Virus record (IMG/VR): IMGVR_UViG_3300034093_001036
Coordinates: 1 to 64,000 of that record
Origin: a virus
Reading direction: 5' to 3' (one strand)
DNA length: 64,000 bases
Below are positions 2,691-64,000 of this stretch, in pieces (position 1 is the stretch's first letter; the number at the start of each line of letters is the position of its first letter). Below the pieces are notes generated by a model that searched no databases, had not been told where the DNA came from, and saw only the letters and a program-made list of their open reading frames with translations. The translations under genes were made by a program, and so were the position numbers.

Positions 2691-4112
2691 CTATCTTATC
2701 ACTAAATTGTTATAAGTTTTTTGCCATTTTTCTATATCATTTTCATCATTTAGTAGTGGCTGTCCTTTAATATTAAGGCTTGTATTTAATAGTATTGGAA
2801 CACCAGTTTCAATATAAAACTTATTAAGAACTCTCCATAACCCACGATGTTGATCTTTATTTACAGTTTGAACTCTTGAGGTTCCATCAGCATGAACTAC
2901 AGATGGTATTTTATCTGGCTGAAGACACTTAACTGTATATTGCATATAAGGGCTTGCAAAATCCATATCAAACCACTTAGACGCACACTCTTCCATAACT
3001 ACTGGAGCAAATGGTCTAAACAACTCTCTTTGTTTAATTAAATTAACTTTATCTTTTATATTTGGATCTCTTGGGTCAGCAAGAATGCTTCGATTGCCCA
3101 ATGCTCTTGGACCGTATTCTGCTCTGCCTGTTGCTACTGCTACGATTCCATCTTTTAATATACCGTCCACAATTTGCTGAACAGGATACTCTCCTCCAAG
3201 ATCATAGCCAAGATACGGAGTCTTCCAGTCAAGGTGCTTTCCGTACAAGGCTGCTGCTGCACCTAAAGAACTACCAGCATCTCCTGGGTTAGGCATGATC
3301 CAAATCATATCAAAAATATTCCATAGCAATGTATTTGCTGAAGAGTTAAGGGCACAACCACCCATAAATACTAAGTTCTTTTTACCAGTAAGGGACTTTG
3401 CCATACGCATAAACTGATTTAATCTTTGCTCATACACTACTTGTACTGCTGCAGCAATATCAAACCTATCTTGCTCTGTAATTATCATTCCCCAGTCATT
3501 AATTCCTTTATGAAAATTATATTTTTGTTTATCGTATGAAGGAAAATATTCATCAACCTCTTTGTAGTAACGCTTCCAGTCACCATAGGCAGCCATTCCC
3601 ATCATAATGTATTCTTCTTGGTTTGGCATAAGTCCAATAAGTTGTGTAAAAGCAGAATAAAATAGTCCAAAACTAACTGGATAGTTTTGCTTATACTTAA
3701 GTTTAATCTTGTCGCCCTCACCAACCCAAATAGTTGAAGTGTTATATTCTCCTATTGCATCTAATACAACAATTACAGCATCGTTAAATGCGCTTGTGTA
3801 GTATCCTGCTGCTGCATGAGAGTAGTGATGCTTAAAGTAGTGTACTGGAACATCTAAAGGAATGTTTGGCTTCCAGTCTGCTGCGCCACCCTTTAACATT
3901 ATTCTAGATCTTTTAAGCCAAGGCTTCTCATAGTAAGCAATGTAGTCTGGTGTTCCATAGTTTAATGCATCTAAGATAATATCTTTGTTGTTATACCAAT
4001 CATTCTTTTGTTTACTATATCTTTCTGCATGTCCCGCAAAAAGTATTTCTCCATCTTTAATTAAAGATACAGATGCGTCGTGGGAAGTTTCGTTAATTCC
4101 TAAAATTATCAT
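2691..4112 (-). CDS. Carbamoyltransferase, NodU/CmcH/TobZ family
   Basis: These enzymes make carbamoyl-adenylate from carbamoyl phosphate and ATP and pass the carbamoyl group to a hydroxyl, usually on a sugar. The N-terminal Kae1-like half has the metal-binding HHYSH (residues 95-99), GGCALNSSAN (251-260) and GDAGSS (277-282). The YrdC-like half has GRAEYGPRALGNRS (329-342) and ends soon after ILLNTSLNIKGQP. At 473 residues it is shorter than the usual 540-600, with the shortfall at the C-terminus. Its start overlaps the stop of the upstream SGNH-like gene by four bases (ATGA), implying translational coupling. Possible acceptors are a glycan on the virion or host, or a modified base; the sequence does not decide. 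Confidence 0.9.
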   Translation of the reverse strand: MIILGINETSHDASVSLIKDGEILFAGHAERYSKQKNDWYNNKDIILDALNYGTPDYIAYYEKPWLKRSRIMLKGGAADWKPNIPLDVPVHYFKHHYSHAAAGYYTSAFNDAVIVVLDAIGEYNTSTIWVGEGDKIKLKYKQNYPVSFGLFYSAFTQLIGLMPNQEEYIMMGMAAYGDWKRYYKEVDEYFPSYDKQKYNFHKGINDWGMIITEQDRFDIAAAVQVVYEQRLNQFMRMAKSLTGKKNLVFMGGCALNSSANTLLWNIFDMIWIMPNPGDAGSSLGAAAALYGKHLDWKTPYLGYDLGGEYPVQQIVDGILKDGIVAVATGRAEYGPRALGNRSILADPRDPNIKDKVNLIKQRELFRPFAPVVMEECASKWFDMDFASPYMQYTVKCLQPDKIPSVVHADGTSRVQTVNKDQHRGLWRVLNKFYIETGVPILLNTSLNIKGQPLLNDENDIEKWQKTYNNLVIR

Positions 4113-47004: not shown

Positions 47005-50000
47005 TTAGGCTGGGGTCTCTACGAACTGACTCCATTTTACGTCAGTAAATATAGTGTATGTATACTCTTCAAAACGAACTGGTCTATCATCATCTACAAT
47101 AATTTTGTTTGTGCCCGTATAACTCTTATAAACATCTGAAGGGTTTACACCATAATAACTTGTTTCTGATAAGACAAGAACCTTATTCCAGTTAAAAGAT
47201 GGACTATCCCAGAACTCCCAGTCAAGGGGCGAAGACCCCAAAACCTTAACTCTAAACCAAGGTCTTTCTGCTATGTTCTGAACTTCTTGTAGATTAGTAG
47301 ACTGATAGTATGAAAGGCTGTTAAATAGTAGTGGTCCAGTTAATCTTACTGCCCCTTCAAAAAATGAAAAATTAAGACTGTTTGCAAAATTAATCCCAAG
47401 GAATCCCCACTCTTGAAGAGTTATTACTGGCTCTTTTACTATTTTTCCATTCCAATAAAATCCAATACCGTTTTGGACTAGGCCAGTATTTGCATCTATT
47501 GCGTAAATTTTTGCTCTGCGTCCAGAAGGATCATTAGCAACCATGTAAAATTTTATGTAAGAATCTTTGCTTTGGATTTCAAATATCTGTGTTGGTGCAT
47601 ATGGGAAATAGTCTCCGTCAAACCTTACGGCCATTTGCATTGCTATAGCCTTAAATCCTTCGGCTCTGCTTTCATTTACAGGAATCATAAGACCTCTATT
47701 AACTAATGGATCATACCTTCCTTTTAATTGAATTCCGCTTGTTTTGGTTAAATAAAGATACGGAGATGATCCTGTATAGATTGCAAAAGGATTATTCTTT
47801 TTAAAGTTATAATAAATTCCAGTCTTTGTATATGGATAAACAGATGTTCCAAACCTTGTTCCAATTGGACTAGCATCAGATTCATTAAATGCTTGTGATG
47901 CATAAGAAAGTTTTTTAATTAATACATTGTTTGTTTCTGAATTTTTTACATTCATTTCTATGTGTGTAACAATAGACAAGTCATTGAAGTCTACTCCAGT
48001 TGGTGGGTATATAATCATATTATCTACAACTTCATATTTTGTTGTCATCCAGTCTGAACCAGGAACTAATACTCCATCTCTTGAAGGTCTTTCTGTTTTT
48101 GTAAAATAATAGTATGTTTGGTTTGCACCCAATTCTGTATATTGAAAAGTTACATAACTTTTTACAATTGATCCATCTGTGTCATATTTATATTCTTTTG
48201 CTATTTTATTTTTTAAATCATCGTAATCATTGTATCCAGTAAAAAGGTAATTGTCTAGTGATGTGTATGTTCTTTGAACTGGGGTTCCGTATTCATCTGA
48301 TAACTCTGCATATGTCCAAGCCTCTGGATCTGTTTCTATTGCTACAGTCTTTGATGGTATTGGGTAATCAATATTAAACTGAATAAAGTCAAGATCAAAA
48401 TATTGGTCCCCTCGTTTATCAAGAACGGATTCAGCAAAATATGTTAGTGGAAGTTGATCTTCCCAATATGCGCTTGCAGATACAGCAAGTTTGTATGTAT
48501 CAAAAACTATCTCTGGTAAAAGAGTATAACTTGCAACATGGTCTAAAAGGGAATCCTCTTCAGCAACAACCACACTACCGCCAGTAAGTGCTCCATTTGC
48601 TGTGTCTGTTGTACCTCCATAAGGTGGCATAGAAGTTGTATCTATTCCTCCGTCTATGTTGATTAACTGGTTATTTTGGTAAATAGCAAACAAGTCTTCA
48701 TTCCATACTGGAACACCTATCTCATTAAACAAAGATCTAATTTTTTGAAAGTTATATGCTGTACATAGTCCTACATTGTATATTTTTCCAGTAAAAGTTG
48801 ATAGACCGTTCTTGTCTCCACCAACATACATTCTTAGGTCTGATAAAGATCCAAAAAAGTCTGATGCTGGGTTTCCAAATCTTGATACAAATGCTGGAAT
48901 GTTTAAACCTATGTCTACTAGTTCTCCTGGCTCCGCAACTAAAGGAGAATAGATGGTTTCTGATATTCCGTTATAATTAATAATATAAGATATTTGATTA
49001 TTTAAAAGTTGTATCTTGAAATAACTATTTGTATTTTCTTTTTCTATTTTAAAAAGTGTTTGGGCTGAACTTGAGGTTTGTGGTAATCTAAAACAACCGT
49101 AGAAAGCAGATACTGGGGTTTTTATAAAATCAAAATTTTTAAAGAAAAGATGACCAGAAACATTATTCCAAGAAGTGTTTGGTCTAAAGGAAAAAAAGTT
49201 TCTTGTATCTGATGATTGAACTAGACCACAATCTGACAAAAGTTCTTTTTCTGTTTTTGATGACAAGACTGTTTCTGGAAGTGGGTGAGATAAAACAGAA
49301 AGAGACTTATTTACAATTGATGTATTATCATTAAAGGCTTGACTCCACGAACCTACCTTTGGATATGAGTAGTTTGAGGTGTAGTCTGCAAATGAATAAT
49401 CAATAAAAACAGATGTTCCACTATAAGATGTATTAATGTTTTCTGGAATATCAACGCCTTGCCCAAACACAAACCTTCTTTTTGCAACAGCAGTTGCAAC
49501 AATGTATGGATAAATTCCAACGCAGTCAACCTCTATTGGATATATATCATTATATGCGTAAAAGCCTATCCAGTCTTGATCTTTAAGACTTTCATTTAAC
49601 ATAGAAGGTAAAGAAAGTGACTCAGTTAAATAGTTTAAAGAAACAACTTCTTGGCCATTTATTACAAGAGATGCAGTGTCTTTGCCAACACGCATGTGAA
49701 CCAGCATTGGCCTTGTCCACTCACCAACATAATATGCACCATAGTTATCTCCTATCTTTAATCCTATTGATGGTCCATCAACATATATTCCATCTTCTGA
49801 TGCAATTGGACCAATAATTCTTTTCCTGTCATTACTATATGAATTTATTCTAAGCCAGGTTTCAAAAGTATACTGCTTAAATTTTCCAGACTCATTTAAA
49901 AATCCAGAACCAGGAACTATAAGGGAGGGCAAATCTGTATTTGGATATATAGTTGTAAGACCAGATGTTCCATAGACAATTGGAATACCTGAATTTTTTG

Positions 50001-50721
50001 CCTTAAGCATATTATCGGAAACTAAATAATATGCGTCTAACTCTTGCAGTCCGTAACATTTTGACACAACGCCCTTTTGTGGTGCAATAGATATAGTGGA
50101 TGGTATATCAATTGACTCAACTCCAAGGGATGTAGATGCAAACTCTTCTGACCATTGACCAAGACTTATTCCGTTTACTAAAAACACATCATCTGTTTCT
50201 GATCCACCAATAAAGTTAATCTTAAAAACTAGTCTTATATCTGTATCATCTGGTGGCGTATCAAAAGTTTCTGATATAAAAATCCAGTTGCTATTTATTA
50301 CTGTGTCATAGTTTTTTAAATGAACTATGTCATCTCCACTTGTTGTGTCTGTGTATTGATAACCAATTTCAAGACCAGCAATATATGCGCTTTCAGAATA
50401 AAAATATCCACCTACAGAAAATGTTCTTAAATAAGTATTAAAGTCTCTTAGGCTCATTATTTCATTACTTGTTGCAATTATAGAAGCCAACTCGTTGTCT
50501 GTTGGTGTAGCGGTAATTTTACCCACATAACTATTTATAAATGGTTCGTCTATTGATTGAGAATAGTCTTGATATGTACCGCCAACAATTGTCCAATTTG
50601 ACAAATTTCTTTGCGACTCTGAAAGTAAAGAAATGTAATCTGCTGTATCATCTAAAGCCCATAGACCAGTCGGATGCTCAGCAAAGACTTTTTCGGCATA
50701 TAGGTTTGATGGATTAGACAT
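47005..50721 (-). CDS. Large LamG/ConA-like virion protein
   Basis: The protein has 1238 residues, nearly all beta. Two or more LamG-type domains are visible: YTFETWLRINSYSNDRKRI (about 290-310) leading to VHMRVGKDTASLVINGQEVV, and IKFYMVANDPSGRRAKIYAID near 1105-1125. Opening GLWALDDTADYISL is the usual beginning of a LamG unit. Such jelly-roll proteins bind glycans and serve as fibres or decoration proteins. The gene sits upstream of the portal, not with the tail genes, so it may belong to the head surface. TGGTAAAAT lies shortly before the ATG (predicted leader three bases). Confidence 0.7.
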   Translation of the reverse strand: MSNPSNLYAEKVFAEHPTGLWALDDTADYISLLSESQRNLSNWTIVGGTYQDYSQSIDEPFINSYVGKITATPTDNELASIIATSNEIMSLRDFNTYLRTFSVGGYFYSESAYIAGLEIGYQYTDTTSGDDIVHLKNYDTVINSNWIFISETFDTPPDDTDIRLVFKINFIGGSETDDVFLVNGISLGQWSEEFASTSLGVESIDIPSTISIAPQKGVVSKCYGLQELDAYYLVSDNMLKAKNSGIPIVYGTSGLTTIYPNTDLPSLIVPGSGFLNESGKFKQYTFETWLRINSYSNDRKRIIGPIASEDGIYVDGPSIGLKIGDNYGAYYVGEWTRPMLVHMRVGKDTASLVINGQEVVSLNYLTESLSLPSMLNESLKDQDWIGFYAYNDIYPIEVDCVGIYPYIVATAVAKRRFVFGQGVDIPENINTSYSGTSVFIDYSFADYTSNYSYPKVGSWSQAFNDNTSIVNKSLSVLSHPLPETVLSSKTEKELLSDCGLVQSSDTRNFFSFRPNTSWNNVSGHLFFKNFDFIKTPVSAFYGCFRLPQTSSSAQTLFKIEKENTNSYFKIQLLNNQISYIINYNGISETIYSPLVAEPGELVDIGLNIPAFVSRFGNPASDFFGSLSDLRMYVGGDKNGLSTFTGKIYNVGLCTAYNFQKIRSLFNEIGVPVWNEDLFAIYQNNQLINIDGGIDTTSMPPYGGTTDTANGALTGGSVVVAEEDSLLDHVASYTLLPEIVFDTYKLAVSASAYWEDQLPLTYFAESVLDKRGDQYFDLDFIQFNIDYPIPSKTVAIETDPEAWTYAELSDEYGTPVQRTYTSLDNYLFTGYNDYDDLKNKIAKEYKYDTDGSIVKSYVTFQYTELGANQTYYYFTKTERPSRDGVLVPGSDWMTTKYEVVDNMIIYPPTGVDFNDLSIVTHIEMNVKNSETNNVLIKKLSYASQAFNESDASPIGTRFGTSVYPYTKTGIYYNFKKNNPFAIYTGSSPYLYLTKTSGIQLKGRYDPLVNRGLMIPVNESRAEGFKAIAMQMAVRFDGDYFPYAPTQIFEIQSKDSYIKFYMVANDPSGRRAKIYAIDANTGLVQNGIGFYWNGKIVKEPVITLQEWGFLGINFANSLNFSFFEGAVRLTGPLLFNSLSYYQSTNLQEVQNIAERPWFRVKVLGSSPLDWEFWDSPSFNWNKVLVLSETSYYGVNPSDVYKSYTGTNKIIVDDDRPVRFEEYTYTIFTDVKWSQFVETPA

Positions 50722-52883: not shown

Positions 52884-53654
52884 TTAAGACGTTAACTTTT
52901 TCCACTCTTCTTTTTGAATGGCTTGCTCAATTCTTACTTGTTTTTCTTCTTCTTTCCACTTATCAATAGTTTCTTGACTATATTCAATTTCAAAATAATC
53001 CCAAAAAGAAACCATAGTATATCTTGTGCCTTCTAATATTTTACTAACACCATGCACATTTTCTATTCCTCCAGGAAATACATAGTAAGAGTATGCATTT
53101 GGTTTAAAGGATAAATAGATGTCCCACTTTTCTCCTTCTGAATTTATTTCAAAGTCTTCTTTTTCTTTACAAAAGAAAAGATCTCCACCTTCATAGTCGT
53201 TATTAAGATATAGAATACCCACATACTTATTTATTTCAAAAGCGTTTGGGACCCCGTCATTATCTGAGTTGTCAGAATGAGGAGAAGCAAAACCGCCAAC
53301 ATCCCACTTCTGTGCATGAGATGTATTGGCTCTAACTTTTCTTTCAAAAACCAGTTCAACTGCTTCTTTAAACTTTTCTCTAAGGTCATCAAAAAATGTT
53401 AGCGTTAGACCATGTTCTTCAAGTCCTGGATCGTTTGCCATTAATCCCATACCTAGAGATCCATAAAACGCTATGTCTCCCCAGTTTTCTCCTTTTGACT
53501 CTACATAATTAATTAGACATTGGCTTGTTTTTTCATCTATAAAATTAGGAATTTCAACAATTCTGTTGTGAGTTATACCTAAAACACCCTTATTATTTAA
53601 TTCATCTTTTAAATATTTAAAGTTATCTTTATTAAGTTGATTAATGATAGTCAT
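52884..53654 (-). CDS. 2OG-Fe(II) oxygenase, prolyl 4-hydroxylase-like
   Basis: The protein has 256 residues. The double-stranded beta-helix contains SPHSDNSD (HxD iron ligands), LYLNNDYEGGDLFF, NVHGV (distal His) and TRYTMVSFWDYF (Arg for 2-oxoglutarate). The family hydroxylates Pro, Lys or other groups on proteins or small molecules using O2 and 2-oxoglutarate. It is the last of the oxygenase run and overlaps its upstream neighbour by 14 bases. A charged helical tail (KWKEEEKQVRIEQAIQ) extends the usual domain and may mediate partner binding. The substrate is unknown. Confidence 0.88.
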   Translation of the reverse strand: MTIINQLNKDNFKYLKDELNNKGVLGITHNRIVEIPNFIDEKTSQCLINYVESKGENWGDIAFYGSLGMGLMANDPGLEEHGLTLTFFDDLREKFKEAVELVFERKVRANTSHAQKWDVGGFASPHSDNSDNDGVPNAFEINKYVGILYLNNDYEGGDLFFCKEKEDFEINSEGEKWDIYLSFKPNAYSYYVFPGGIENVHGVSKILEGTRYTMVSFWDYFEIEYSQETIDKWKEEEKQVRIEQAIQKEEWKKLTS

Positions 53655-54453
53655 TTTTTATGTAAACCCCGCTGCTTCTTTCAATGTTCATTCTGTCTTT
53701 TTCCATTTGCATCCATGTATCTGGTCCATATTTTTTTTGATTCTCAATCCAAGCATCTGATGCTTGTTCATCTACATACCAAAAAGATCTAACAAAATAC
53801 TTTTCTCCTTCAGTAGTTTCTCTTACTCCATGCCAGTACGGTGGCCTTGACGGAAAGATAATTACATCTCCTTCTTCTGGCTTATAAGTAATTCTTGTAA
53901 AAGAATCTTTATTGGAAAATACTTTAAATTCAATTTCTCCGCCATTATAGTTACTATTTAAATACATATTGCAAGTCAGGGCTTGTTTTTCTCCTGGACC
54001 CTCTGCATCTTCTTGTGGATAGTCTGTATGAAAAGACATAGAATATCTTGAATTGTTGTTTTCAATATGTGGAGAGTCACTTTCAGCCTTTGTAGAATCT
54101 TTTGAATTATAGTATTTGCATATGTCAGCCTTTAAAAATACTAAGTCCTCTAAGGATAGACCCGTTGTATCAACATAATGCTTTGTTGTTTTATAAAAAA
54201 CATCAAGTATATCCTTGTGTTGATCTGATACAAGAAAAGATTCTATGTATAAAGACCATTCTTGATCTGAAGGAAAAGATTTAGATCGATAAAAATTGTT
54301 ATTGAAAATTTTATAAATATCCCCAAAGTCATACCACTTTTCCCAAGTTGCGGAATCTAGAGAATCCAGAAGGCCACGCAAATCTTTAAATGGGTTCTTA
54401 TATACAAAAATGTTTTGGTCTATTTTATTAAAATTAATATTTTTAATTGTCAC
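53641..54453 (-). CDS. 2OG-Fe(II) oxygenase, prolyl 4-hydroxylase-like
   Basis: The protein has 270 residues. SFHTDYPQ (HxD), CNMYLNSNYNGGEIEF, PEEGDVIIFPS, YWHGVRE (distal His) and KYFVRSFWYV (Arg) are all intact. It is a close paralogue of the protein at 54450-55286: the two share FH(S)DY, AL-TCxMYLN, GDVxxFPS and the end EEWxxMEKxRI. An N-terminal phrase NIFVYKNPF also recurs in the paralogue. It overlaps both neighbours (4 and 14 bases). The substrate is unknown; a protein or glycan on the virion or host is likely. Confidence 0.88.
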   Translation of the reverse strand: MTIKNINFNKIDQNIFVYKNPFKDLRGLLDSLDSATWEKWYDFGDIYKIFNNNFYRSKSFPSDQEWSLYIESFLVSDQHKDILDVFYKTTKHYVDTTGLSLEDLVFLKADICKYYNSKDSTKAESDSPHIENNNSRYSMSFHTDYPQEDAEGPGEKQALTCNMYLNSNYNGGEIEFKVFSNKDSFTRITYKPEEGDVIIFPSRPPYWHGVRETTEGEKYFVRSFWYVDEQASDAWIENQKKYGPDTWMQMEKDRMNIERSSGVYIKNDYH

Positions 54454-55286
54454 ATTGCTACCTTAGATTCATCTATACCCTTTTTAATATTTGGCTTTTT
54501 GAAATCGTGATACCTGTCACCTCTATCAATTCTTTCTTTTTCCATCTTTGCCCATTCTTCAACACCAAATTTTTCTTGATTATCGTGCCACTCTTTTGTT
54601 CCAGCAAATGGAATTTGATAAAAGCATCTAATAAGATATTTGTCAATATTTCTAATTCTTTTAACACCGTGAAGGTATCTTCCCTCTTGAGATAATAAAT
54701 CTGGATGGCCTGAAGGAAAAACCAAAACATCTCCAGCCTCTGGTTTATAATCTATAACCGTTTTATTCCCAGTTAAAAATGTTATACCTCCATCGCCATA
54801 GTCATCATTCAAATACATTGTGCATGTTAATGCAAATTGTGCTCCTGGGCAATCTGTTTCAAGGGCTTTATAGTCTGAGTGATGGATCATTTCTAAAGAA
54901 TCTTTATCGCTATTTGGATCATTGTCATGAGTATATTTTGAAATTGATGGGCCCATAATAATCCAGTCCTCTCCTATTTTAAGATTATGGGCAGACATAA
55001 AATTTTCGGTTGCATAACCAAATGCATGCTGTATTGTTTCTAATGCCTCAACCTCTTCTAAATATAGTGTGTTATTAATATTAGGATCATCTTCATTTAG
55101 AAAATTACCAATGACATATACATAGTGTCCAAACCTACTCCATGGTTGCCAATCGTCAAATAAAAAACTAGTTCCTTTGTTTAATTCAGACTGCTTAAAT
55201 AATTCTACAATCCTTTTATTGTTTGGAATTAACCCTTTGTAAACATAAATGTTTTCATCTAATTGTTTAACTGTAATATTATTCAT
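54450..55286 (-). CDS. 2OG-Fe(II) oxygenase, prolyl 4-hydroxylase-like
   Basis: The protein has 278 residues. IHHSDYKAL (HxD), CTMYLNDDYGDGGITF, PEAGDVLVFPSGHP, YLHGVKRI (distal His) and KYLIRCFYQI (Arg) give a complete active site. It starts from its own extended -10 (55325-55333), with GGGGGA before the ATG, and is followed by two coupled oxygenase genes. The N-terminal motif NIYVYKGLIPNNKRI recurs in several cassette members (IFVYRDVLP, INVYKNAIN), suggesting a shared docking element. Confidence 0.88.
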   Translation of the reverse strand: MNNITVKQLDENIYVYKGLIPNNKRIVELFKQSELNKGTSFLFDDWQPWSRFGHYVYVIGNFLNEDDPNINNTLYLEEVEALETIQHAFGYATENFMSAHNLKIGEDWIIMGPSISKYTHDNDPNSDKDSLEMIHHSDYKALETDCPGAQFALTCTMYLNDDYGDGGITFLTGNKTVIDYKPEAGDVLVFPSGHPDLLSQEGRYLHGVKRIRNIDKYLIRCFYQIPFAGTKEWHDNQEKFGVEEWAKMEKERIDRGDRYHDFKKPNIKKGIDESKVAM

Positions 55287-55324
55287 TTTTTGTCCCCCAT
55301 TGGATTATCTTTAAACATATAATT

Positions 55325-55333
55325 ATTATACCA
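55325..55333 (-). promoter_or_regulatory. Extended -10 TGGTATAAT inside the oxygenase cassette
   Basis: TGGTATAAT overlaps the stop of the JmjC-like gene. The predicted start near 55318 gives a 32-base leader ending in GGGGGACAAAAA before the ATG at 55286. It would serve the last three oxygenase genes. Confidence 0.5.
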
Positions 55334-55880
55334 CCTTGTCTCCAAATAAAATTGCAAAACCAAATCTAGGGGTTATGGGTTCAACATAGTGGTAAGTTCC
55401 ACCAGGTATATACAATAGATCTCCTTCTTCTAATATAACATCCATAAAAGGTTGATCATTTTCAACAGAATCATAAAGTCTCCAACGTGTTTTACCTTTA
55501 CATTGCCAATGTATATTGTTTTCCCTGTCTTCATGTTTGCCAATAACTTGTCCGCTATCTTCAAGTTTAAGTGAACCAAATAACTGACATGTTACAACCT
55601 TTAAATCTTTAAAACAAGGATAAAATCTAGAATGAACTTCTTTTACAAATAAATTTACTGAACTTATAATCTGTGCCTCATCATAAAATAATGCGTATGG
55701 ATTAGGCAAAATCTTTTTACCAGTTTTTTTGTGCTCATAATCATTTACAAACTGAAGCACTTCATCCCAGGTAACTTCAGGCATTGATATTTTTGGAAAA
55801 AGAGTTGCTACTTTATTATTATAAGCATTTAAAAAATTATCTTGATCTAAAAAATTAAAATCAAAACTTTTATTTTTCAT
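55326..55880 (-). CDS. JmjC/cupin-like 2OG oxygenase
   Basis: The protein has 184 residues. GKHEDRENNIHWQ with CKGKTRWRLYDS, EEGDLLYIPGGTYHYVEP and RFGFAILFG follow the cupin-4/JmjC layout used by bacterial ribosomal-protein hydroxylases (H..D, Q, G.K.W.LY, IP.G..H). It is much shorter than those enzymes and lacks the dimerisation and winged-helix parts. It overlaps the next gene upstream by four bases. Family members hydroxylate His or Arg on proteins; the target here is unknown. The fold is more certain than the reaction. Confidence 0.75.
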   Translation of the reverse strand: MKNKSFDFNFLDQDNFLNAYNNKVATLFPKISMPEVTWDEVLQFVNDYEHKKTGKKILPNPYALFYDEAQIISSVNLFVKEVHSRFYPCFKDLKVVTCQLFGSLKLEDSGQVIGKHEDRENNIHWQCKGKTRWRLYDSVENDQPFMDVILEEGDLLYIPGGTYHYVEPITPRFGFAILFGDKVV

Positions 55881-56551
55881 TTTGATTTTCCATGTGAACG
55901 AATTGTAAAGAAAAAAGGAATAACATATCTAATTCCTTTTTTAATTTCTCTTACTCCGTGAATATAATTTAAATCTCCAGGGAAGAAATATGCAGAACCC
56001 GCTTTTGGCTTAAACTCAATTCCTTGATTTGGGAAATATAACTCTCCACCTTCATAGTCATCATTAAGATAAAAAAGACCTGCAATATCATACCAAGGAA
56101 AATCATTTGGCTTTCCTACATTGTCTCCTTCGTGCAACTCTTTATCTGCATGTGGGTTTTGTAGTTGTCCTGGAAGCCATCTAACAATTGCTGTTGCTGT
56201 GGGCCAGGCGTCAATATTAAAAAAATCATTTACTTCTTCTGTAAGCCTGTCTTGAAGGCTTTTAATTACTGGGTTTATATTTTTATTATTTTGATCTAAT
56301 CTATCTCCAGTGCAGACTCTGTCATCCCAATATTTAGAATCATAAATAACAGTTCCTTCTTCGTTATAGTGAGTTTCAGTAATATCCCAAATTGTAATAT
56401 TTTTTGCTGATTCTGATAAAAAAGATAGTTCTTCGTCGGTCATAAAATTGTTTCGTGCTTGGATCATATCTGCACTTTTACCAAAAAATCCAGAGGGAGT
56501 TATTGAAAATCTATCTTTATCTTGGTGATTAGAGTACTCTATTTTTTTCAT
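55877..56551 (-). CDS. 2OG-Fe(II) oxygenase, prolyl 4-hydroxylase-like
   Basis: The protein has 224 residues. NPHADKELHEG (HxD), FYLNDDYEGGELYFP, PKAGSAYFFPGD, YIHGVREI (distal His) and IRYVIPFFFT (Arg) are intact. RNNFMTDEELSFL resembles the N-terminal entry of P4H-like domains. It is transcribed from an extended -10 whose predicted start is the A of its ATG (56558-56566). It overlaps the JmjC-like gene by four bases. Confidence 0.88.
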   Translation of the reverse strand: MKKIEYSNHQDKDRFSITPSGFFGKSADMIQARNNFMTDEELSFLSESAKNITIWDITETHYNEEGTVIYDSKYWDDRVCTGDRLDQNNKNINPVIKSLQDRLTEEVNDFFNIDAWPTATAIVRWLPGQLQNPHADKELHEGDNVGKPNDFPWYDIAGLFYLNDDYEGGELYFPNQGIEFKPKAGSAYFFPGDLNYIHGVREIKKGIRYVIPFFFTIRSHGKSK

Positions 56552-56557
56552 ACAGTT

Positions 56558-56566
56558 AGTATATCA
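56558..56566 (-). promoter_or_regulatory. Extended -10 TGATATACT giving a leaderless start
   Basis: TGATATACT ends exactly six bases before the ATG at 56551, so the predicted +1 is the A of ATG. It lies in the 20-base gap between two cassette genes. Confidence 0.55.
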
Positions 56567-56571
56567 TCTTT

Positions 56572-57306
56572 CTATTCATATTTGCGCTGCTCCCAGATTT
56601 CATTTTTATATATTCCGCCATTTGGTTTTCTATAAATTTGATAATTTTCTATTGATTGCTTCATTAGTTCAACTGCATTATCTTGTTCTATTATTTCAGA
56701 AGTCCAGGATTCTCTTTTAAATGGCAGAAGTTGAGCATACGCTGTTCCTTCTGGAATAATTCCCTCAAAACCCTCACAAATAAAAAATGGAAAAGATCCA
56801 GGCATATGAACTTTGTCGTTATCCACAATTCCACTAGTTAGCAAAAATGGTAACTCAAATCTGTTAAATGGCTGAGTATACAATACGCTATATCCTGGAG
56901 GAGTTTTTATTTGCCAATCTGGAGTTATTGCAAAATGATTTTTGTAATACCCGCGGGGGTGTTCAAACTGTGGCATTTCTGATCTTTCTTCAATTAAGTT
57001 TTTATATTTTACATTTAAAACTTTATGTTTTAGTCCAGAATCAGTCATGTAGAATTCAATATCGCAAGGAAGATTAAGAGAATATCCAGAACCCATAATA
57101 TCAAAAATTGCAGGACAGGCCTTCCATGTAGGAACTTTTCCACCATCCTCTCCTATATAAAAAGAATTGTCTGTTGGTAATTTTGCAAACCTATCTGCTT
57201 TTCTAAACCATTCAGGAATTGTTCTTATAATTGGAGTTGGTGCTGACTTGCTTTCTTTTGAAAGCCAAATTTTATTTGCAATAAAAGATATTTTTTCTGT
57301 ATTCAT
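56572..57306 (-). CDS. DUF6065-like protein (first copy in gene order right-to-left: second)
   Basis: The 244-residue protein has IPEWFRKADRFAK (about 29-41), CPAIFDIMGSGYSLNLPCDIEF, TPPGYSVLYTQPFNRFELPF and IIPEGTAYAQLLPFKRESW. The last motif and the general order match the neighbour at 57306-58016 (PLPYAWKITRANEVITIPAG, in parts, and IPAGTPIVCIMPI), so the pair are paralogues of a beta-sandwich family with no known activity. They lie between two groups of oxygenases and overlap each other by one base. Pairing suggests a heteromer that works with the oxygenases. Confidence 0.6.
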   Translation of the reverse strand: MNTEKISFIANKIWLSKESKSAPTPIIRTIPEWFRKADRFAKLPTDNSFYIGEDGGKVPTWKACPAIFDIMGSGYSLNLPCDIEFYMTDSGLKHKVLNVKYKNLIEERSEMPQFEHPRGYYKNHFAITPDWQIKTPPGYSVLYTQPFNRFELPFLLTSGIVDNDKVHMPGSFPFFICEGFEGIIPEGTAYAQLLPFKRESWTSEIIEQDNAVELMKQSIENYQIYRKPNGGIYKNEIWEQRKYE

Positions 57307-58016
57307 TACTTGTCACTTTGATATTTATTAATTGAAAGTTTTAAGGATTTTACTTCGTGCTCTCCAAGGCTATTTCCTAAATGGTCAACAGCATCTCTAT
57401 AAAAGTTTGTCCATTGTCCAGACTGAGTTATTTCTCCAGAGGCTTTTCCATATTCAGAAAGATTCTTTTCAAAATCTTGATCTTTTACATAGTCGTACAG
57501 ATTTACTTCTGTTGCTTGGAGTTTTTTTAAACTAATTGGCATAATACAAACAATTGGTGTTCCTGCTGGTATTGTTATTACTTCATTTGCCCTTGTTATT
57601 TTCCATGCATATGGAAGTGGAGCAAGATGGACAACTGGACTAATTACACTTGAGAATCCTTGAACACCATCAATAAATTGATTTGGAACTGGAAGGAGCA
57701 GTAGACTAATCTCATCAGTACTTTTAAAATATAAACCACTATTAAAACTTATAGTTCCGTTAGCCCTGTTTGCATGAACATACTTTTCTCCAGAAAGAAT
57801 TTCAAGGTCTTCAGATCTAGAGTTTGGATCTGTTCCTTTCCAAATAAAAGAAATGTCTTCTGGAAAAGAAAATGTCCATCCTGTTGTGTTTGCCAACGAT
57901 ACTGGGAAGCAATGATAGGCGTGTTTGTCAAAAGTTTCATCCATCCAGTTTCTTCTAACTTTTAAAGTATCAAAAGTTACATCAGAATGTGGTGTTTGAT
58001 AAACATCTATAGACAT
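57306..58016 (-). CDS. DUF6065-like protein (paralogue of 56572-57306)
   Basis: The 236-residue protein contains RRNWMDETFDKHAYHCFPVS with LANTTGWTFSFPEDISFIW, the pattern I associate with DUF6065 (R.WMD.T..R.AYRCLPL.IAN..GW), plus VITIPAGTPIVCIMPI. Its reaction is unknown. The C-terminal helix region is charged (DVKDQDFEKNLSEYGKA). It starts with GGAAACTAAC before ATG and is one base from the upstream oxygenase gene. The family name is a recollection that needs a profile search. Confidence 0.6.
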   Translation of the reverse strand: MSIDVYQTPHSDVTFDTLKVRRNWMDETFDKHAYHCFPVSLANTTGWTFSFPEDISFIWKGTDPNSRSEDLEILSGEKYVHANRANGTISFNSGLYFKSTDEISLLLLPVPNQFIDGVQGFSSVISPVVHLAPLPYAWKITRANEVITIPAGTPIVCIMPISLKKLQATEVNLYDYVKDQDFEKNLSEYGKASGEITQSGQWTNFYRDAVDHLGNSLGEHEVKSLKLSINKYQSDK

Positions 58017-58017
58017 G

Positions 58018-58704
58018 TTAGTTTCCTGTTTCTAAAAACATCTCTGGTCCATGGAATTTTGCGCTGTAGTCTAGCATTGTTACAATTGAATATTTAGTTC
58101 CGCTAGTAACTGGCATTGCTCTATGAGAATACATATATGTTGATGGGAAAATATACAAATCTCCAGCACGTGGTTTTACTAATAAATCTTGGTGTTGAAA
58201 ATGTAAACCACCGTCGACGTAGTCGTCATTTGGGTATGCAACCAAAGACACTGTACAGTTATAAGAAAATCCATGATCATGATGATATTGGAAATGCTGA
58301 CCCTCATGGTATCTAATAAAATTCATTGCTTCCCAAAACCTTAGTTCTGCAATATTAAACATTTTACGATAGTGCTCAACTGCTGGACTTTTTCTATCGT
58401 AGCAGTCTTGCCAAAGTTGTTGAAGCGCTAAAGATGCTTCTCCTGGTCTTTGTGCCATATCTTTCTTTGTAAACTTAAAGTCAACACAATCTCTATATTC
58501 TGGCATGCTTTCTTGATAGCCAACAAACGCTTCCATCCAGTGAAATGGGTTGCTTTGGTCTTCAAGAACAGACTCTAATCTGTTAATAATATCCAGTTCT
58601 TTAGGTAAAACATCTCTATAGACAAAAATTCCACTCCCTAGATCTTCAAAAGACGACCAGGTTTGCTCTATAGGGGTTGTCTCAGTTTGAACATGTTTTT
58701 GCAT
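58018..58704 (-). CDS. 2OG-Fe(II) oxygenase, prolyl 4-hydroxylase-like
   Basis: The protein has 228 residues. QYHHDHGFSYNCTVS supplies HxD; AYPNDDYVDGGLHF, PRAGDLYIFPSTYMYSH (distal His) and GTKYSIVTMLDY (the Arg is replaced by Lys at the 2OG site) follow. It is a paralogue of the 58740-59444 protein (HGDHGPFYACTIS; IKYSVVIMTDY), with the same Lys change, so these two form a distinct subgroup. It has its own extended -10 at 58731-58739. Confidence 0.85.
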   Translation of the reverse strand: MQKHVQTETTPIEQTWSSFEDLGSGIFVYRDVLPKELDIINRLESVLEDQSNPFHWMEAFVGYQESMPEYRDCVDFKFTKKDMAQRPGEASLALQQLWQDCYDRKSPAVEHYRKMFNIAELRFWEAMNFIRYHEGQHFQYHHDHGFSYNCTVSLVAYPNDDYVDGGLHFQHQDLLVKPRAGDLYIFPSTYMYSHRAMPVTSGTKYSIVTMLDYSAKFHGPEMFLETGN

Positions 58705-58730
58705 TTTTTCCTGCTTTCTACTATGTATAT

Positions 58731-58739
58731 ATTATAGCA
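58731..58739 (-). promoter_or_regulatory. Extended -10 TGCTATAAT
   Basis: TGCTATAAT follows the stop of the 58740-59444 gene. The predicted start near 58724 gives a 20-base leader containing GCAGGAAAAA before ATG 58704. Confidence 0.5.
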
Positions 58740-59444
58740 CTAGTTATTCTTATGATGTAAATCGTTATAGTCTGTCATAATTACAACAGAATACTTTATA
58801 CCCTGCAATAATTCACAAGAGGCATGCTCATAAACAAAATTTGATGGGAAAAGAACAATGTCTCCAGCCTGGGGCTTAATCTTTAATTCTTGTCTTGGAA
58901 ACTCTAATTCTCCACCAACATAGTCATCATTAAGATATAGTATTGCAGATATTGTACATGCATAGAATGGGCCATGGTCACCATGAAGTTTAAAATATTT
59001 CCCAGGTAGATACTTAACAAAATTAAAGGCTTCTTTGTATTTCATCTGAAGATGCCATAAAGACTCATAATCATTTAGGCAGACATCTAATGCGTCTTCT
59101 ACCTCTTTGTGTATGTCAAACATGTCTTGATTAAAAGATATCCCAGACTTTCCAAGCATATCTCTTTTATATTTTATATCAATGCAGTTCCTAACATAAT
59201 CTAAATTTTCTACATCATTAACCATTGCTGTAGACCAAGAAAGGTTACAGTCTGGATCGTTTGCTGAGTTTTCTAGTCTTTTAATTATACTATCACACTG
59301 GCTTCTATTTATGGCATTTTTATATACATTAATACCGTAGCCAATATTTAAAACCTCTATGTTATTTGACATTGATCTAGACTTTAGCCTACTGTCTGCT
59401 TTTTCTAATCTTGGTAAATCAAGCCACCCAAAGTTATTTGTCAT
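58740..59444 (-). CDS. 2OG-Fe(II) oxygenase, prolyl 4-hydroxylase-like
   Basis: The protein has 234 residues. KLHGDHGPFYACTIS (HxD), LYLNDDYVGGELEFP, PQAGDIVLFPSNFVYEH (distal His) and IKYSVVIMTDY give the active site, with Lys in the 2OG-anchor position as in its paralogue at 58018. An N-terminal motif INVYKNAINRSQCD matches the shared entry element of the cassette. It begins at the predicted +1 of TGCTATAAT (59451-59459) and may be read from a leaderless mRNA. Confidence 0.85.
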   Translation of the reverse strand: MTNNFGWLDLPRLEKADSRLKSRSMSNNIEVLNIGYGINVYKNAINRSQCDSIIKRLENSANDPDCNLSWSTAMVNDVENLDYVRNCIDIKYKRDMLGKSGISFNQDMFDIHKEVEDALDVCLNDYESLWHLQMKYKEAFNFVKYLPGKYFKLHGDHGPFYACTISAILYLNDDYVGGELEFPRQELKIKPQAGDIVLFPSNFVYEHASCELLQGIKYSVVIMTDYNDLHHKNN

Positions 59445-59450
59445 TCTAAT

Positions 59451-59459
59451 ATTATAGCA
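59451..59459 (-). promoter_or_regulatory. Extended -10 TGCTATAAT giving a leaderless start
   Basis: TGCTATAAT ends exactly six bases before the ATG at 59444 (predicted +1 is the A of ATG). It lies in the 44-base gap after the methyltransferase gene. Confidence 0.6.
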
Positions 59460-59488
59460 TATCTACATATTTATACAAAATATTAATT

Positions 59489-60166
59489 TTAAATTTGATA
59501 TATGTAAATTTCTGCAAAATCATAAATTGGATCTTTTTTAAGCAATTCTTTAAAAATATAATCATTTTCAAAATGAAAAACAAAAAAGGATTTAGATTTT
59601 GATAAAATTTCCCATTTATCTAATATTAATTTATTAAAAATTTCAGGCAGCAATGGGTAATAAAAATAATAAACACACTTTTCTTCTGAAAAATGATAAT
59701 CATTTATATCACTATTTATAAAATCAACTTCTTTATCTATTTCTATATTAATTGTTTTTAAATTATTTAAAGCAATATTGTTGAATTGATCGTCTATCTC
59801 TACACCTACATACTTCTTATACGGTGCATTTGAGATTAACTGATGTAAAATTGTTTTTCCCTTACCGCTACCTATATCTAAAAAGGTATACTCCTCAATT
59901 CCTTCAATATCTTTCATAAAATTATTCACCATGTCTAAAATTTTTAAAGGTGAGTTCTGTAAACCCATTGATCCTGGAAACCTATCATTATTATCAATAC
60001 TGCCTGGCACATATTCACCAGAACCATCTGAGGCTAAAGGAGTTGGATGCCAAGTGTCTACATTATATTTTTCATCAAAAAATTTGAATAATGAAGCGTC
60101 TTCTCTTCTAATTTTTTTTAATACATCTAAATTCTTTATTGTACTTTTGTCTACACCTTTATGCAT
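59489..60166 (-). CDS. Class I SAM-dependent methyltransferase
   Basis: The protein has 225 residues. TFLDIGSGKGKTIL (motif I, about 105-118), YVGVEIDDQF (acidic motif II), DFINSDINDYHF (motif III) and YYFYYPLLPE (position of motif IV) define a Rossmann-type methyltransferase. The target is not evident: motif IV is YYPLLP rather than the DPPY of DNA methylases, so a protein, glycan or small molecule is favoured. GGAG precedes the ATG, and the start overlaps the preceding gene by eight bases. Confidence 0.82.
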   Translation of the reverse strand: MHKGVDKSTIKNLDVLKKIRREDASLFKFFDEKYNVDTWHPTPLASDGSGEYVPGSIDNNDRFPGSMGLQNSPLKILDMVNNFMKDIEGIEEYTFLDIGSGKGKTILHQLISNAPYKKYVGVEIDDQFNNIALNNLKTINIEIDKEVDFINSDINDYHFSEEKCVYYFYYPLLPEIFNKLILDKWEILSKSKSFFVFHFENDYIFKELLKKDPIYDFAEIYIYQI

Positions 60167-60746
60167 TTTTTGCTCCTAAATATTTGTTTGGCATGATATC
60201 AATTATAGCATGGATTCTGTCATGGTCACTATCGTTTATTACTGAGTGTGGAATAATATTATTAATCTCATACCAATTTCCAACCTCAAGATACTTTTTT
60301 TCTTCAAATACTTCAAATATGACTTTTGGATTTGTTATTAGTGGAATATGTATTCTTCTACCGAGTTGTAGCATTACCCCGCCATCAACGTGAGATTTTA
60401 TTCCAGAGCGCTTATTCATTTGAATTATCTCACTCCTAATAACTTTGCCATCGTACAAGTTTTCTAAATATTCATAAATAGCATTAAGGCTTTCATTAGA
60501 TTGTTTATTTTTAAAATAATTTATATCATAAGATGTATTGCCTTGTCCAATTTCCCAATGATAAGACATAAACCTTAGTTGAAACATTTTTGTATCTTTG
60601 TGCGTTGCCAACTTGTCTTGACGAGAAGTATCCAGTAGCCACTCATTTTCAAAAGAGTTAACTTCTTGAATTATTGAAGATAGATCAACTGGTAAAGATC
60701 CATATTGATAGTTCCAAGAAGTATTCTTATCTGGTAGTTTTAACAT
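60159..60746 (-). CDS. Aspartyl/asparaginyl beta-hydroxylase-like 2OG oxygenase
   Basis: The protein has 195 residues. IKSHVDGG (HxD), RRIHIPLITN, EVGNWYEINNIIPHSV (distal His) and DRIHAIIDIM (Arg) follow the Asp/Asn hydroxylase layout, including the R.HIPL strand. This family hydroxylates Asp/Asn on EGF-like or other proteins, and in bacteria some act on peptides or lipids. It is distinct from the P4H-like group of the same cassette. It overlaps the sulfotransferase gene by 20 bases and the methyltransferase gene by eight. Confidence 0.82.
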   Translation of the reverse strand: MLKLPDKNTSWNYQYGSLPVDLSSIIQEVNSFENEWLLDTSRQDKLATHKDTKMFQLRFMSYHWEIGQGNTSYDINYFKNKQSNESLNAIYEYLENLYDGKVIRSEIIQMNKRSGIKSHVDGGVMLQLGRRIHIPLITNPKVIFEVFEEKKYLEVGNWYEINNIIPHSVINDSDHDRIHAIIDIMPNKYLGAKNA

Positions 60747-61414: not shown

Positions 61415-62779
61415 CTACTGAGAATCTCTGATAGTTAAGCCTTGGAAGGCACCCTTCTTATTATGAGAGATTAGATCTCCTGCAATAAAGAGTGAATAAG
61501 GATTTACAGTGATGTCATAAACATCTGTTGTTTCATCAATATATTCAACAACTTCAACAAGGGTATCAACTGCTTGATTATTGATATCGGATACTAGGTA
61601 GTCTCCAACTTTAACGACGCCAGCCTGTACGAATGCATAGACTCCATCTCTCTTAACAAGCATCAAGTGCTCCATAGAGAATCGTTTTTCGTTGGTGCTA
61701 TTGAATGCTACTGTAGTTGCAACATCTCTAGCCTTGATTGCTCCGATAACTGTTTCAACAACTGATGATCCAGTTAGAGTATCAGATACCCATGTCTCAG
61801 CAAAATCAACAGATGAGTTATCTGGTAATTCATTGAAACTGTAGGATACTAGACTTTGTCCAATAGCCAGGTCTCTTGCTTTAACATATCCACTAGTTGT
61901 TCTTACAAGAACATCACCTTGTACGCAGAATACTGGTGGGAAGAACGGACAGAATACTGGTGGGAAGAACGGACAGAATACTGGTGGGAAGAACGGACAA
62001 AAACGTGGTGGGAAGAACGGACAGAATACTGGTGGGAAGAACGGTGGGAAGAATGGGAAGAACGGACAAAAACGTGGTGGGAAGAACGGTGGGAAGAACG
62101 GTGGGAAGAATGGGAAGAACGGTGGGAAGAATGGTGGGAAGAATGGGAAGAACGGTGGGAAAAATGGAGGGAAGAAAGGAGGTGTTGTTGTAACGTTGTT
62201 AGAACTATTACCGTATAGTCCATCTCCATTAGCATTTATAGCAAGAACCTGATAACTCTGTGATGTATCTCCAGTTTCTGCTACAGTTGTTGACAAAACA
62301 TTTCCTACAACATAAACTGGACCATCAGAAGACTTTACACGATATCCAGTAATTGCAGATCCGCCAGTTGCAGGTGCTGTCCAAGATACTGTATCTAAGT
62401 TAACGGCTGTAGTTGCTGTTGGAGCATTTGGAGCAGCAGGAACTGTTGTTGCCAATACTCCTGCTGATGCAGAAGATGCTGCTGATGTTCCCGCAGCATT
62501 AGTTCCTGTTACTGTAAATGTGTAAGAAGTATTTGATGCAAGACCATCAACGGTAATTGGAGAGGCAGAAGAACTTCCTGTAAACCCTCCTGGAGAAGAT
62601 GTTACTGTAAATGATGTTGCTGCTGGAGAATCTCCTGGTAATGAAAAACTAACACTTATGGCACCATTGTTAAACGCACGTGAAGTTCCTACGTTTGTGC
62701 CTACAACAGATATGGGTGGTTTTGGCTCTAATGAGTCATTCTGTTGTAAAGATTTAGATCCTAGTTCTTTTTTTGCCAT
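61415..62779 (-). CDS. FN3-repeat protein with Pro/Phe/Cys stalk and C-terminal Hint (intein-like) domain
   Basis: The protein has 454 residues: two fibronectin III-like domains (about 22-115 and 116-205), a 75-residue stretch of only Pro, Phe, Cys and few Arg/Val (about 207-284), then Cys285 and a Hint domain to Asn440. Hint blocks are clear: CVQGDVLVRTTSGYVKARDL (block A), SMEHLML with VVKVGDYLV (block B) and VYDITVNPYSLFIAGD with LISHN (blocks F/G). There is no endonuclease insert. After Asn440 come 14 residues beginning Lys441, not Cys, Ser or Thr, so ordinary splicing is unlikely and cleavage or transfer is expected. GGAGA precedes the ATG. It is a likely virion or secreted adhesin processed at the Hint border. 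Confidence 0.85.
   Translation of the reverse strand: MAKKELGSKSLQQNDSLEPKPPISVVGTNVGTSRAFNNGAISVSFSLPGDSPAATSFTVTSSPGGFTGSSSASPITVDGLASNTSYTFTVTGTNAAGTSAASSASAGVLATTVPAAPNAPTATTAVNLDTVSWTAPATGGSAITGYRVKSSDGPVYVVGNVLSTTVAETGDTSQSYQVLAINANGDGLYGNSSNNVTTTPPFFPPFFPPFFPFFPPFFPPFFPFFPPFFPPFFPPRFCPFFPFFPPFFPPVFCPFFPPRFCPFFPPVFCPFFPPVFCPFFPPVFCVQGDVLVRTTSGYVKARDLAIGQSLVSYSFNELPDNSSVDFAETWVSDTLTGSSVVETVIGAIKARDVATTVAFNSTNEKRFSMEHLMLVKRDGVYAFVQAGVVKVGDYLVSDINNQAVDTLVEVVEYIDETTDVYDITVNPYSLFIAGDLISHNKKGAFQGLTIRDSQ
61925..62185 (-). repeat. Short tandem repeats encoding the Pro/Phe/Cys stalk
   Basis: The plus strand shows ggtgggaagaacgg words repeated throughout. Near 61925-62030 the period is 24 bp (P-V-F-C-P-F-F-P), while other units have 9, 12 or 15 bp, so the protein reads PPVFCPFF, PPRFCPFF and plain FPPFF. 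Length should vary readily by slippage. Confidence 0.85.
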
Positions 62780-62809: not shown

Positions 62810-64000
62810 TTATGCTGTGAGATCTCCAACAACAACCCAAGAGTCTGTTGCTCTCTTCATTAATGTTGCTGATGACCACTGTGTACGAAGTTTTAATCCT
62901 GGAGTTGCATTAACTGTTACTCCTACTGCTCCAGCAATTGTTACTTGTCCCGCACCAGTTTGAAGGATATCAATTGATGATCCTATTGGAAAGGCTGTTG
63001 TTGCATTTGTTGGAATTGTAACTGTTACTCCAGTAGCAGAAGAAACTTCAATTAATGAATCTCTTTCATTAAGTGCTGCAAGTGTGTAGCCTGCTGTTTT
63101 TTGTATAATTGTTGTACGTGATGGAACGCCTTCTTTTGTTTGTGTTCCATCTGTGAATTGTACTCCGCCTGCTGGAACAGTTATTCCTACGCCAGTAAAT
63201 ATTGGGGAAGCAAGTGGTGCATATGTATTTGCTGCTGTTGATGAAGCAAGTTTTAGGTCTAAAGCAGTTTGTGTAGCAGTTGAAACTGGCTTGTTAGCGT
63301 CGGAAGTATTTTCTACGTTTCCAAGACCAACCATTGTTGCTGAAATACCTGAAACTGTTCCACTAAATGCTGGGGAACTAAGTGGTGCATACCCTGAAAT
63401 GCTTGCGCCTGTAGGAATTGTTACTTCTCCAGTAAATGTTGGTGAGGCTAGTGGTGCATACCCTGAAATGCTTGCGCCTGCAGGAATTGTTACTGATCCA
63501 GTAAATGTTGGTGCATGCAATGGTGCCTTATAACCAAGTACTGTGTGTGTAGCAGTTGAAACTGGCTTATCTGCATCTGCTGTATTATCAACAGATCCTA
63601 GGCCTACCATTGACTTTGTTACACCAGACACAGTTCCTGTGAATGTTGGTGAAGCAATTGGTGCCTTAGCAGCAAGGTCAGATGTTAAACCTGAAATCTT
63701 AGACTGTGCAATTGCGGCTGATGCGTTAACGTCTGCGTCTACAATTGTTCCATCAAGTATCAGCGATGAAGTTATTGCCCCAGTTGAAATAGAAACTTCG
63801 TTACCTGATACAGTTACTCCAGTTCCTGCTGTAATTGTTCCTGAACCTGAGAACTGGAATACATCAATGTTATCCGTTCCAACAACAAATGTTGCAGGGT
63901 CTGCAACTACCTGAATCCATCCTGTTCCAGCGTTTGTTCCATCTTGTACGAATATGTATGCGCCTGGAATCTCTGATGCTTCATCACAATATGTACAACG
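62810..64000 (-). CDS. Tail fibre repeat protein (5' end outside window)
   Basis: The frame is open to the right edge (396 codons present). The sequence is built of phage fibre repeats: SPTFTGxVTIPxGASISGYAPL (in parts) three times (about 63400-63530) and MVGLGxVxNTxDAxKPVSTAT twice (about 63260-63340 and 63540-63610). Such GLGNV...PVSTAT repeats form trimeric beta-helical fibre shafts. The C-terminus (GVTVNATPGLKLRTQWSS; RATDSWVVVGDL) is a beta-sandwich tip. An internal GTG at 63631 could mimic a start, but the same repeats continue upstream in frame. It is the first gene before the Hint protein gene. Confidence 0.85.
   Translation of the reverse strand, partial: RCTYCDEASEIPGAYIFVQDGTNAGTGWIQVVADPATFVVGTDNIDVFQFSGSGTITAGTGVTVSGNEVSISTGAITSSLILDGTIVDADVNASAAIAQSKISGLTSDLAAKAPIASPTFTGTVSGVTKSMVGLGSVDNTADADKPVSTATHTVLGYKAPLHAPTFTGSVTIPAGASISGYAPLASPTFTGEVTIPTGASISGYAPLSSPAFSGTVSGISATMVGLGNVENTSDANKPVSTATQTALDLKLASSTAANTYAPLASPIFTGVGITVPAGGVQFTDGTQTKEGVPSRTTIIQKTAGYTLAALNERDSLIEVSSATGVTVTIPTNATTAFPIGSSIDILQTGAGQVTIAGAVGVTVNATPGLKLRTQWSSATLMKRATDSWVVVGDLTA

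What the first reader, a model, noticed from the sequence alone, without database searches (positions are those of the whole stretch)
61415..62779. Phage FN3 protein with Phe/Pro/Cys stalk ending in an autoprocessing Hint domain
Seen: two FN3-like domains, about 75 residues made almost only of Pro and Phe with Cys in register every eight residues, then Cys285-Asn440 with all core Hint blocks and no endonuclease. Known: Hint domains form an internal thioester at the first Cys and can cleave, splice or pass the N-part to a nucleophile (inteins, Hedgehog, bacterial intein-like domains). Here the residue after HN is Lys, so splicing is not expected. Inference: the Hint activates the C-terminus of the PVFC stalk and may attach the FN3 adhesin covalently to another virion component or host molecule. 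The stalk Cys residues could add disulfides or further thioesters. I know of no described phage example with this order.
Basis: partly seen in the sequence, partly recalled or inferred. Interest (0 to 1): 0.9.

Follow-up and report, generated by a model that had tools for sequence, protein, structure and literature searches.

The report
Self-processing tip on phage fibre protein
A virus of aquatic bacteria makes a fibre protein that ends in an intein-like domain with all its cutting residues intact, probably a tip that cuts itself off or joins the fibre's end to something else, and it is one of several swappable tips in a large, unstudied family of phage fibres.

Summary
The 454-aa ORF (minus strand, 62779-61415) has two FN3 domains, an 85-residue stalk (38 Phe, 36 Pro, 5 Cys) and a C-terminal Hint domain (Cys285-Asn440) followed by 14 residues. 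[quoted passage not shown] next is Tetrahymena BIL2). Cys1, block-B His and His-Asn are invariant in an eight-sequence alignment down to 23% identity that includes fibre proteins of Erwinia and Yersinia jumbo phages and Phage NCTB, so processing is likely. 'Stalk Cys as further thioesters' is unsupported; those Cys are absent in relatives. FN3-stalk-Hint order is not unique: the same fibres end elsewhere in nothing, Cys-rich tips, an S74 chaperone or Hints, several of which lost active-site residues. I read it as an interchangeable, here catalytically intact, autoprocessing tip: cleavage most likely, ligation possible, non-catalytic tip not excluded. No protein was tested.

The parts
61415..62779 (-). 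Gene of the FN3-stalk-Hint fibre protein, 454 aa, ATG start
62468..62671 (-). FN3 domain 1 (residues 37-104)
   Evidence: Pfam PF00041 E=9.5e-10, two fn3 stretches
62183..62443 (-). FN3-like domain 2 (about residues 113-199; borders by eye)
   Evidence: second fn3 stretch; borders are inference
61928..62182 (-). Phe/Pro stalk (residues 200-284) with Cys 238, 253, 261, 269, 277; 24-bp tandem array
61460..61927 (-). Hint domain, type-A BIL-like (Cys285-Asn440); no endonuclease
61925..61927 (-). Cys285, predicted thioester residue (Hint Cys1); -1 residue is Phe284
   Evidence: alignments
61667..61669 (-). His371, block B His (motif S368-M-E-H371)
61460..61465 (-). His439-Asn440, block G
61418..61459 (-). 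14-residue C-terminal tail KKGAFQGLTIRDSQ, +1 Lys441
   Evidence: 10-11 of 14 identical in relatives whose Hint is 51-54% identical (P=0.054 for the L015 comparison)
62810..64000 (-). Upstream tail-fibre type protein (continues beyond the window; 905 aa in L262)
   Evidence: PHROG minor tail / tail fibre matches; L262
60727..61413 (-). Sulfotransferase, next gene downstream; same order in L015 and L016
   Evidence: PF03567
52884..60746 (-). Cluster of Asp/Asn hydroxylase, methyltransferase, several 2OG-Fe(II) oxygenases, JmjC-like protein, DUF6065
   Evidence: Pfam; in the 88.6-kb record, homologues of these oxygenases lie only beside the two Hint-fibre genes

Best explanation
This is a modular tail/virion fibre protein whose C-terminal tip is a type-A BIL-like Hint domain with an intact active site. 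Most likely the Hint folds after translation, shifts the Phe284-Cys285 peptide bond to a thioester (His371 and the bulky Phe284 favour this), and Asn440 cyclises. The result is removal of the Hint from the end of the FN3-Phe/Pro stalk. Part of the product may carry the 14-residue tail (or another amine) joined to the stalk end by BIL-type aminolysis. Function: a self-removing or self-finishing end piece of the fibre, in the position where other fibres of the family carry an S74 chaperone, a Cys-rich tip or nothing. Shown by computation: domain order, Hint fold, intact catalytic residues, family-wide swapping of the tip. Inferred: that it reacts in the cell, which product dominates, that the protein is in the virion, and the role as an end piece.
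For: Profile match to the CthBIL structure E=4.9e-13; AF2 model pLDDT 86, top Foldseek hits both BIL domains. In an eight-sequence alignment including 23-27% identical phage virion proteins only 10 columns are invariant, and Cys1, the block-B His and the final His-Asn are four of them. Every Hint checked in the window clade, L071, the Erwinia/Dickeya/Yersinia/Alcaligenes group and the two fibre Hints of NCTB keeps the full set (one window-clade fragment starts after Cys1). Phe at -1 promotes the N-S acyl shift in a studied intein (PMC6333167). The same C-terminal position is taken by Peptidase_S74 (L084, PF13884 E=7.6e-12) or nothing. The two copies in one genome share an 88% identical Hint under dissimilar N-terminal parts, as expected of an exchangeable functional module. 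PHROG and GenBank label the isolate relatives virion structural or tail proteins.
Against: No protein was tested. Many related stalk fibres carry Hints with Gln or Glu in place of the block-B His, some lost His-Asn and four lost Cys1, so the fold can be kept without the canonical chemistry. The tail after Asn440 is at least as conserved as the Hint (P about 0.05), odd for a discarded piece. S74 is only an analogy of position, not of mechanism.
Confidence: 0.55

Rival explanations
1. Ligation device: the thioester at Cys285 is attacked by an amine (the alpha or epsilon amine of Lys441/442 of the freed tail, or a Lys of another virion or host protein), so the fibre end becomes covalently joined by a peptide or isopeptide bond.
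For: BIL2, second-best fold match, forms an isopeptide to a Lys of its C-flank and can conjugate other substrates (PMC8616854); type-A BILs ligate by the free amino group (PMC4031507). Lys at +1 in the window clade and in every HNK* Hint of the stalk family (L071, L081, L123, L150, L222, L231). Tail conserved 11/14 against 54% in the Hint.
Against: Cleavage dominates for tested BILs (PMC4031507). +1 is Thr, Val, Met, Ala or Ser in other lineages and absent in some. The tail's conservation is only borderline beyond expectation (P=0.054). No acceptor protein identified.
Confidence: 0.2
2. Non-catalytic tip: the Hint fold is kept as a compact binding or capping domain at the fibre end, and the residues are retained by descent or for folding.
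For: Block-B His, His-Asn or Cys1 lost in most of the other stalk-fibre Hints while the fold is kept; other tips in the same place are simply different small domains.
Against: The window clade and the distant jumbo-phage clade keep the complete set, and those residues are among only ten invariant columns at 23-27% identity.
Confidence: 0.2
3. Selfish mini-intein that lost its endonuclease and happens to sit near the end of a fibre gene.
For: PF14890 intein splicing match; no endonuclease; phages often carry inteins.
Against: C-terminal in every fibre protein of this family examined, after different N-terminal parts; flanks non-conserved and low-complexity; +1 not Cys/Ser/Thr here; closest solved structure is a BIL, not an intein.
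Confidence: 0.05

Closest known systems
Type-A bacterial intein-like (BIL) domains, e.g. Clostridium thermocellum BIL (PDB 2lwy)
   Same: Best profile and fold match; Cys1, block-B His, C-terminal His-Asn; +1 not Cys/Ser/Thr; no endonuclease
   Different: Found here as the last domain of a phage fibre after a Phe/Pro stalk, with a 14-residue tail; known type-A BILs are in hypervariable parts of bacterial proteins (PMC7765530)
BIL2 of the Tetrahymena BUBL1 locus (PDB 6y75)
   Same: Second-best fold match; Lys in the C-terminal flank as possible acceptor
   Different: BIL2 lies between ubiquitin-like domains and binds Zn; no ubiquitin-like domain here, and activity here is unknown
C-terminal Hints of collagen-like virion proteins of Erwinia/Dickeya/Yersinia jumbo phages (phrog_38766) and Phage NCTB tail proteins
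   Same: Homologous Hint (23-27% identity), same place at the protein's end after a fibrous part, short tail, active site intact
   Different: Collagen-like or Gly-rich stem instead of FN3 and Phe/Pro stalk; +1 mostly Thr; no published function found
Peptidase_S74 intramolecular chaperones of phage tail spikes
   Same: Self-removing C-terminal module; occurs at the same place on a Phe/Pro stalk protein (L084)
   Different: Unrelated fold and chemistry
Hedgehog autoprocessing domain (1at0)
   Same: Hint fold, C-terminal position, thioester at Cys1 (Foldseek E=8e-5)
   Different: No sterol-binding region: only 14 residues follow; uses only the N-S acyl shift (PMC7664689), whereas His-Asn is present here

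Membership tests
Hint superfamily | Horseshoe beta fold with Hint motifs A, B, F | tested here: met
   AF2 model and Foldseek to inteins, BILs and Hedgehog; motifs in alignment
Type-A BIL domain | Cys1 and block-B His | tested here: met
   Cys285, His371
Type-A BIL domain | C-terminal His-Asn with a +1 residue that is not Cys/Ser/Thr | tested here: met
   H439-N440-K441
Type-A BIL domain | Sequence closer to BIL than to inteins | tested here: inconclusive
   2lwy E=4.9e-13 vs next best 2.7e-8 by profile; but the window sequence alone scores an intein better and no tree was built
Type-A BIL domain | Autocleavage and/or splicing activity | not testable with these tools
   needs expression
Intein (class 1) | Cys/Ser/Thr at +1 and insertion into a conserved host protein | tested here: not met
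   Lys at +1; C-terminal in a variable fibre
Hedgehog-type (Hog) Hint | Sterol-recognition region after the Hint | tested here: not met
   only 14 residues follow Asn440
phrog_38766 virion structural protein | Whole-length homology including the collagen-like part | tested here: not met
   only profile positions 331-469 of 478 match, the Hint part
FN3 Phe/Pro-stalk fibre family (defined here) | N-terminal FN3 module and [FYWH]FPP stalk with a variable C-terminal tip | tested here: met
Virion protein | Present in the particle | not testable with these tools
   only homology to annotated virion proteins and a neighbouring fibre gene

The most novel reading that the evidence does not exclude
Phage fibres use a terminal BIL-type Hint as a built-in, ATP-free ligase: the stalk's C-terminus is activated as a thioester and joined to the Lys of the following tail, or to a Lys of another virion or host-surface protein, giving covalently finished or cross-linked fibres; the recurrent +1 Lys is the acceptor.
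Probability: 0.17. Interest if true: 0.85.

Novelty: new variant of a known kind. Interest (0 to 1): 0.62.

Why it matters
If active, it would give phage fibre assembly a second, chemically different self-processing end module beside the S74 chaperones, and a natural role for type-A BIL domains, whose biological purpose is poorly understood. It also points to a large family of uncultivated phage fibres with swappable tips and neighbouring oxygenase genes, whose FN3 part was not found in the isolate-phage collection. A protein of 454 residues with a Cys1 mutant control makes the question directly testable.

Tried and rejected
A single NCTB Hint found no contig. (2) Genome contigs: no Hint relative; the FN3 part gave one short MAG contig (Chitinophagaceae bin, 3.2 kb), too weak for a host. 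The portal is 45-48% identical to Streptomyces phages, which only hints at an actinobacterial host. (3) The idea that the Hint sits exactly in front of the terminal Lys of Hint-less stalks (ends ...FK*, 23 of 136): attractive because HN-K would restore that end, but such ends belong mostly to stalks with other N-termini and several Hints follow ...FKGKC, so I do not rely on it. (4) Stalk Cys as functional thioesters or conserved disulfides: rejected, not conserved. (5) A class-3 intein-like switch in Hints without Cys1 (Cys near block F): position does not fit, not pursued. (6) Tail motif KKGxFQG elsewhere in the held loci: no other occurrence. (8) Literature: no paper in the held library describes Hints at the end of phage structural proteins; subscription papers are not held.

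Full report
What is there. The finding's coordinates hold one ORF, but on the minus strand: 62779 to 61415, 454 aa. Residues 37-104 and a second stretch are FN3 (Pfam PF00041, E=9.5e-10, two stretches). Residues 200-284 are an 85-residue stalk of 38 Phe, 36 Pro, 5 Cys, 4 Val and 2 Arg, coded by a 24-bp tandem array. The only Cys of the protein are at 238, 253, 261, 269, 277 and 285, the last five spaced by eight, and the last one is the first residue of a Hint domain that ends at Asn440, followed by KKGAFQGLTIRDSQ.

Is the Hint real? Single-sequence searches are suggestive only (PF14890 E=2e-5, below its cut-off; phrog_38766 E=2e-8; MjaKlbA intein E=7e-5). An alignment of the window sequence with 27 relatives from IMG/VR (A6) matches the solved BIL domain 2lwy over nearly its whole length at E=4.9e-13 and many inteins. 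AlphaFold2 on that alignment gives pLDDT 86, pTM 0.81, an almost entirely beta domain; Foldseek's best PDB hits are 2lwy (1.5e-7) and the Tetrahymena BIL2 domain (2.1e-7), followed by inteins, and Hedgehog at 8e-5. In the viral library the best hits are uncultured-phage proteins named 'Hint domain containing' (48% identity) and 'Fibronectin type III' (32-33%), so entries of this kind are already deposited, though I found no paper on them.

Active site. Block A Cys285, block B S368-x-E-H371, block F VYD and block G H439-N440 are all present. Aligned with Hints of two Erwinia jumbo phages, a Yersinia jumbo phage and Phage NCTB at 23-27% identity, only 10 columns are invariant, and Cys1, the block-B His, and the final His and Asn are four of them. 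In 46 non-redundant Hint regions the full set is kept in the window clade, in L071, in the collagen-like jumbo-phage group and in the two fibre Hints of NCTB. In other Phe/Pro-stalk fibres and relatives the set erodes: block-B His to Gln with HNK* (L081, L123, L150, L222, L231), to Glu with HNSKV* (L197, L214, L219) or RN* (L095), His-Asn lost as well (L116, L124, L125, L130), or Cys1 lost (L122, L144, L155, L195). So conservation argues for chemistry in this clade, while the family shows that the fold can outlive it.

What could the reaction be? The literature says otherwise: type-A BILs, the closest match, have His-Asn, lack a +1 nucleophile and still splice to some extent because the amino group freed by Asn cyclisation attacks the thioester, although cleavage dominates (PMC4031507); BIL2 makes an isopeptide bond with a Lys of its C-flank and can conjugate other substrates (PMC8616854). 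Lys at +1 is found in the window clade and in all HNK* members of the stalk family. A bulky residue before Cys1, here Phe284, promotes the N-S acyl shift in a studied intein even without the block-B His (PMC6333167). The 14-residue tail is 11/14 identical to that of L015 while the Hint is 54% identical, weak evidence (P=0.054) that the tail is more than waste. I therefore rank cleavage first, with ligation and a non-catalytic tip at about one in five each.

Setting. The window is part of an 88,579-bp virus record with a second Hint fibre at 72.7-74.4 kb: its N-terminal part is dissimilar (Pro/Thr-rich, Cys-containing), it has the same kind of stalk, a linker, and a Hint 88% identical to the first. 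The Hint is thus a module shared between different fibres. A DNA pattern for the stalk hit at least 120 IMG/VR stretches, and the FN3 part has 486 relatives there but none in isolate phages. Among 136 non-redundant complete stalk proteins, 43 end in Cys-rich tips, 52 end within 12 residues of the stalk (23 with a final Lys), 17 in Hints, 5 in S74-like ends and 19 otherwise; the classes were assigned by simple rules. One S74 tip was confirmed by Pfam (L084, E=7.6e-12). The Hint therefore takes the place of a known self-removing chaperone or of nothing, which is the main reason for reading it as an end piece.

Other features of the locus. Downstream lie a sulfotransferase, an Asp/Asn hydroxylase, a methyltransferase and several 2OG-Fe(II) oxygenases; the first three keep their order in L015 and L016 (by reading the ORFs). 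In the record, homologues of these oxygenases occur only beside the two Hint fibres, and 151 of 200 stalk loci carry one against 0 of 20 Erwinia-type loci. The loci come from related phages and the Erwinia set is a loose control, so this is an association. Hydroxylation of the stalk's prolines is a guess.

Limits. No protein was made. Virion location rests on homology. The portal suggests, and no more, an actinobacterial host.

Noticed in passing
L042-L161, L182-L261: Large family of uncultivated-phage fibre proteins with [FYWH]FPP stalks and interchangeable C-terminal tips (Cys-rich, Hint, S74-like, FN3/other, or none).
   Followed up: partly
window 52884-60746 and L262:9990-10571: 2OG-Fe(II) oxygenase genes lie beside the Hint-fibre genes and nowhere else in this record; the same association in 151 of 200 stalk loci. 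Possible hydroxylation of the stalk prolines.
   Followed up: partly
L262:10704-12425: Second Hint fibre of the same phage: dissimilar N-terminal part, Hint 88% identical to the first copy.
   Followed up: yes
L040:5480-5941: Phage NCTB has a separate small Hint-like ORF ending HNKVD*, without the Cys1 motif and with no fused fibre.
   Followed up: no
window 47005-50721: 1238-aa protein next to the portal region with no Pfam or PHROG match and no relative in isolate phages.
   Followed up: no
window 2691-4112: NolO-like carbamoyltransferase gene.
   Followed up: no
L130: Two Hint-bearing proteins in one contig again, both with Cys1 but without block-B His and without His-Asn.
   Followed up: no
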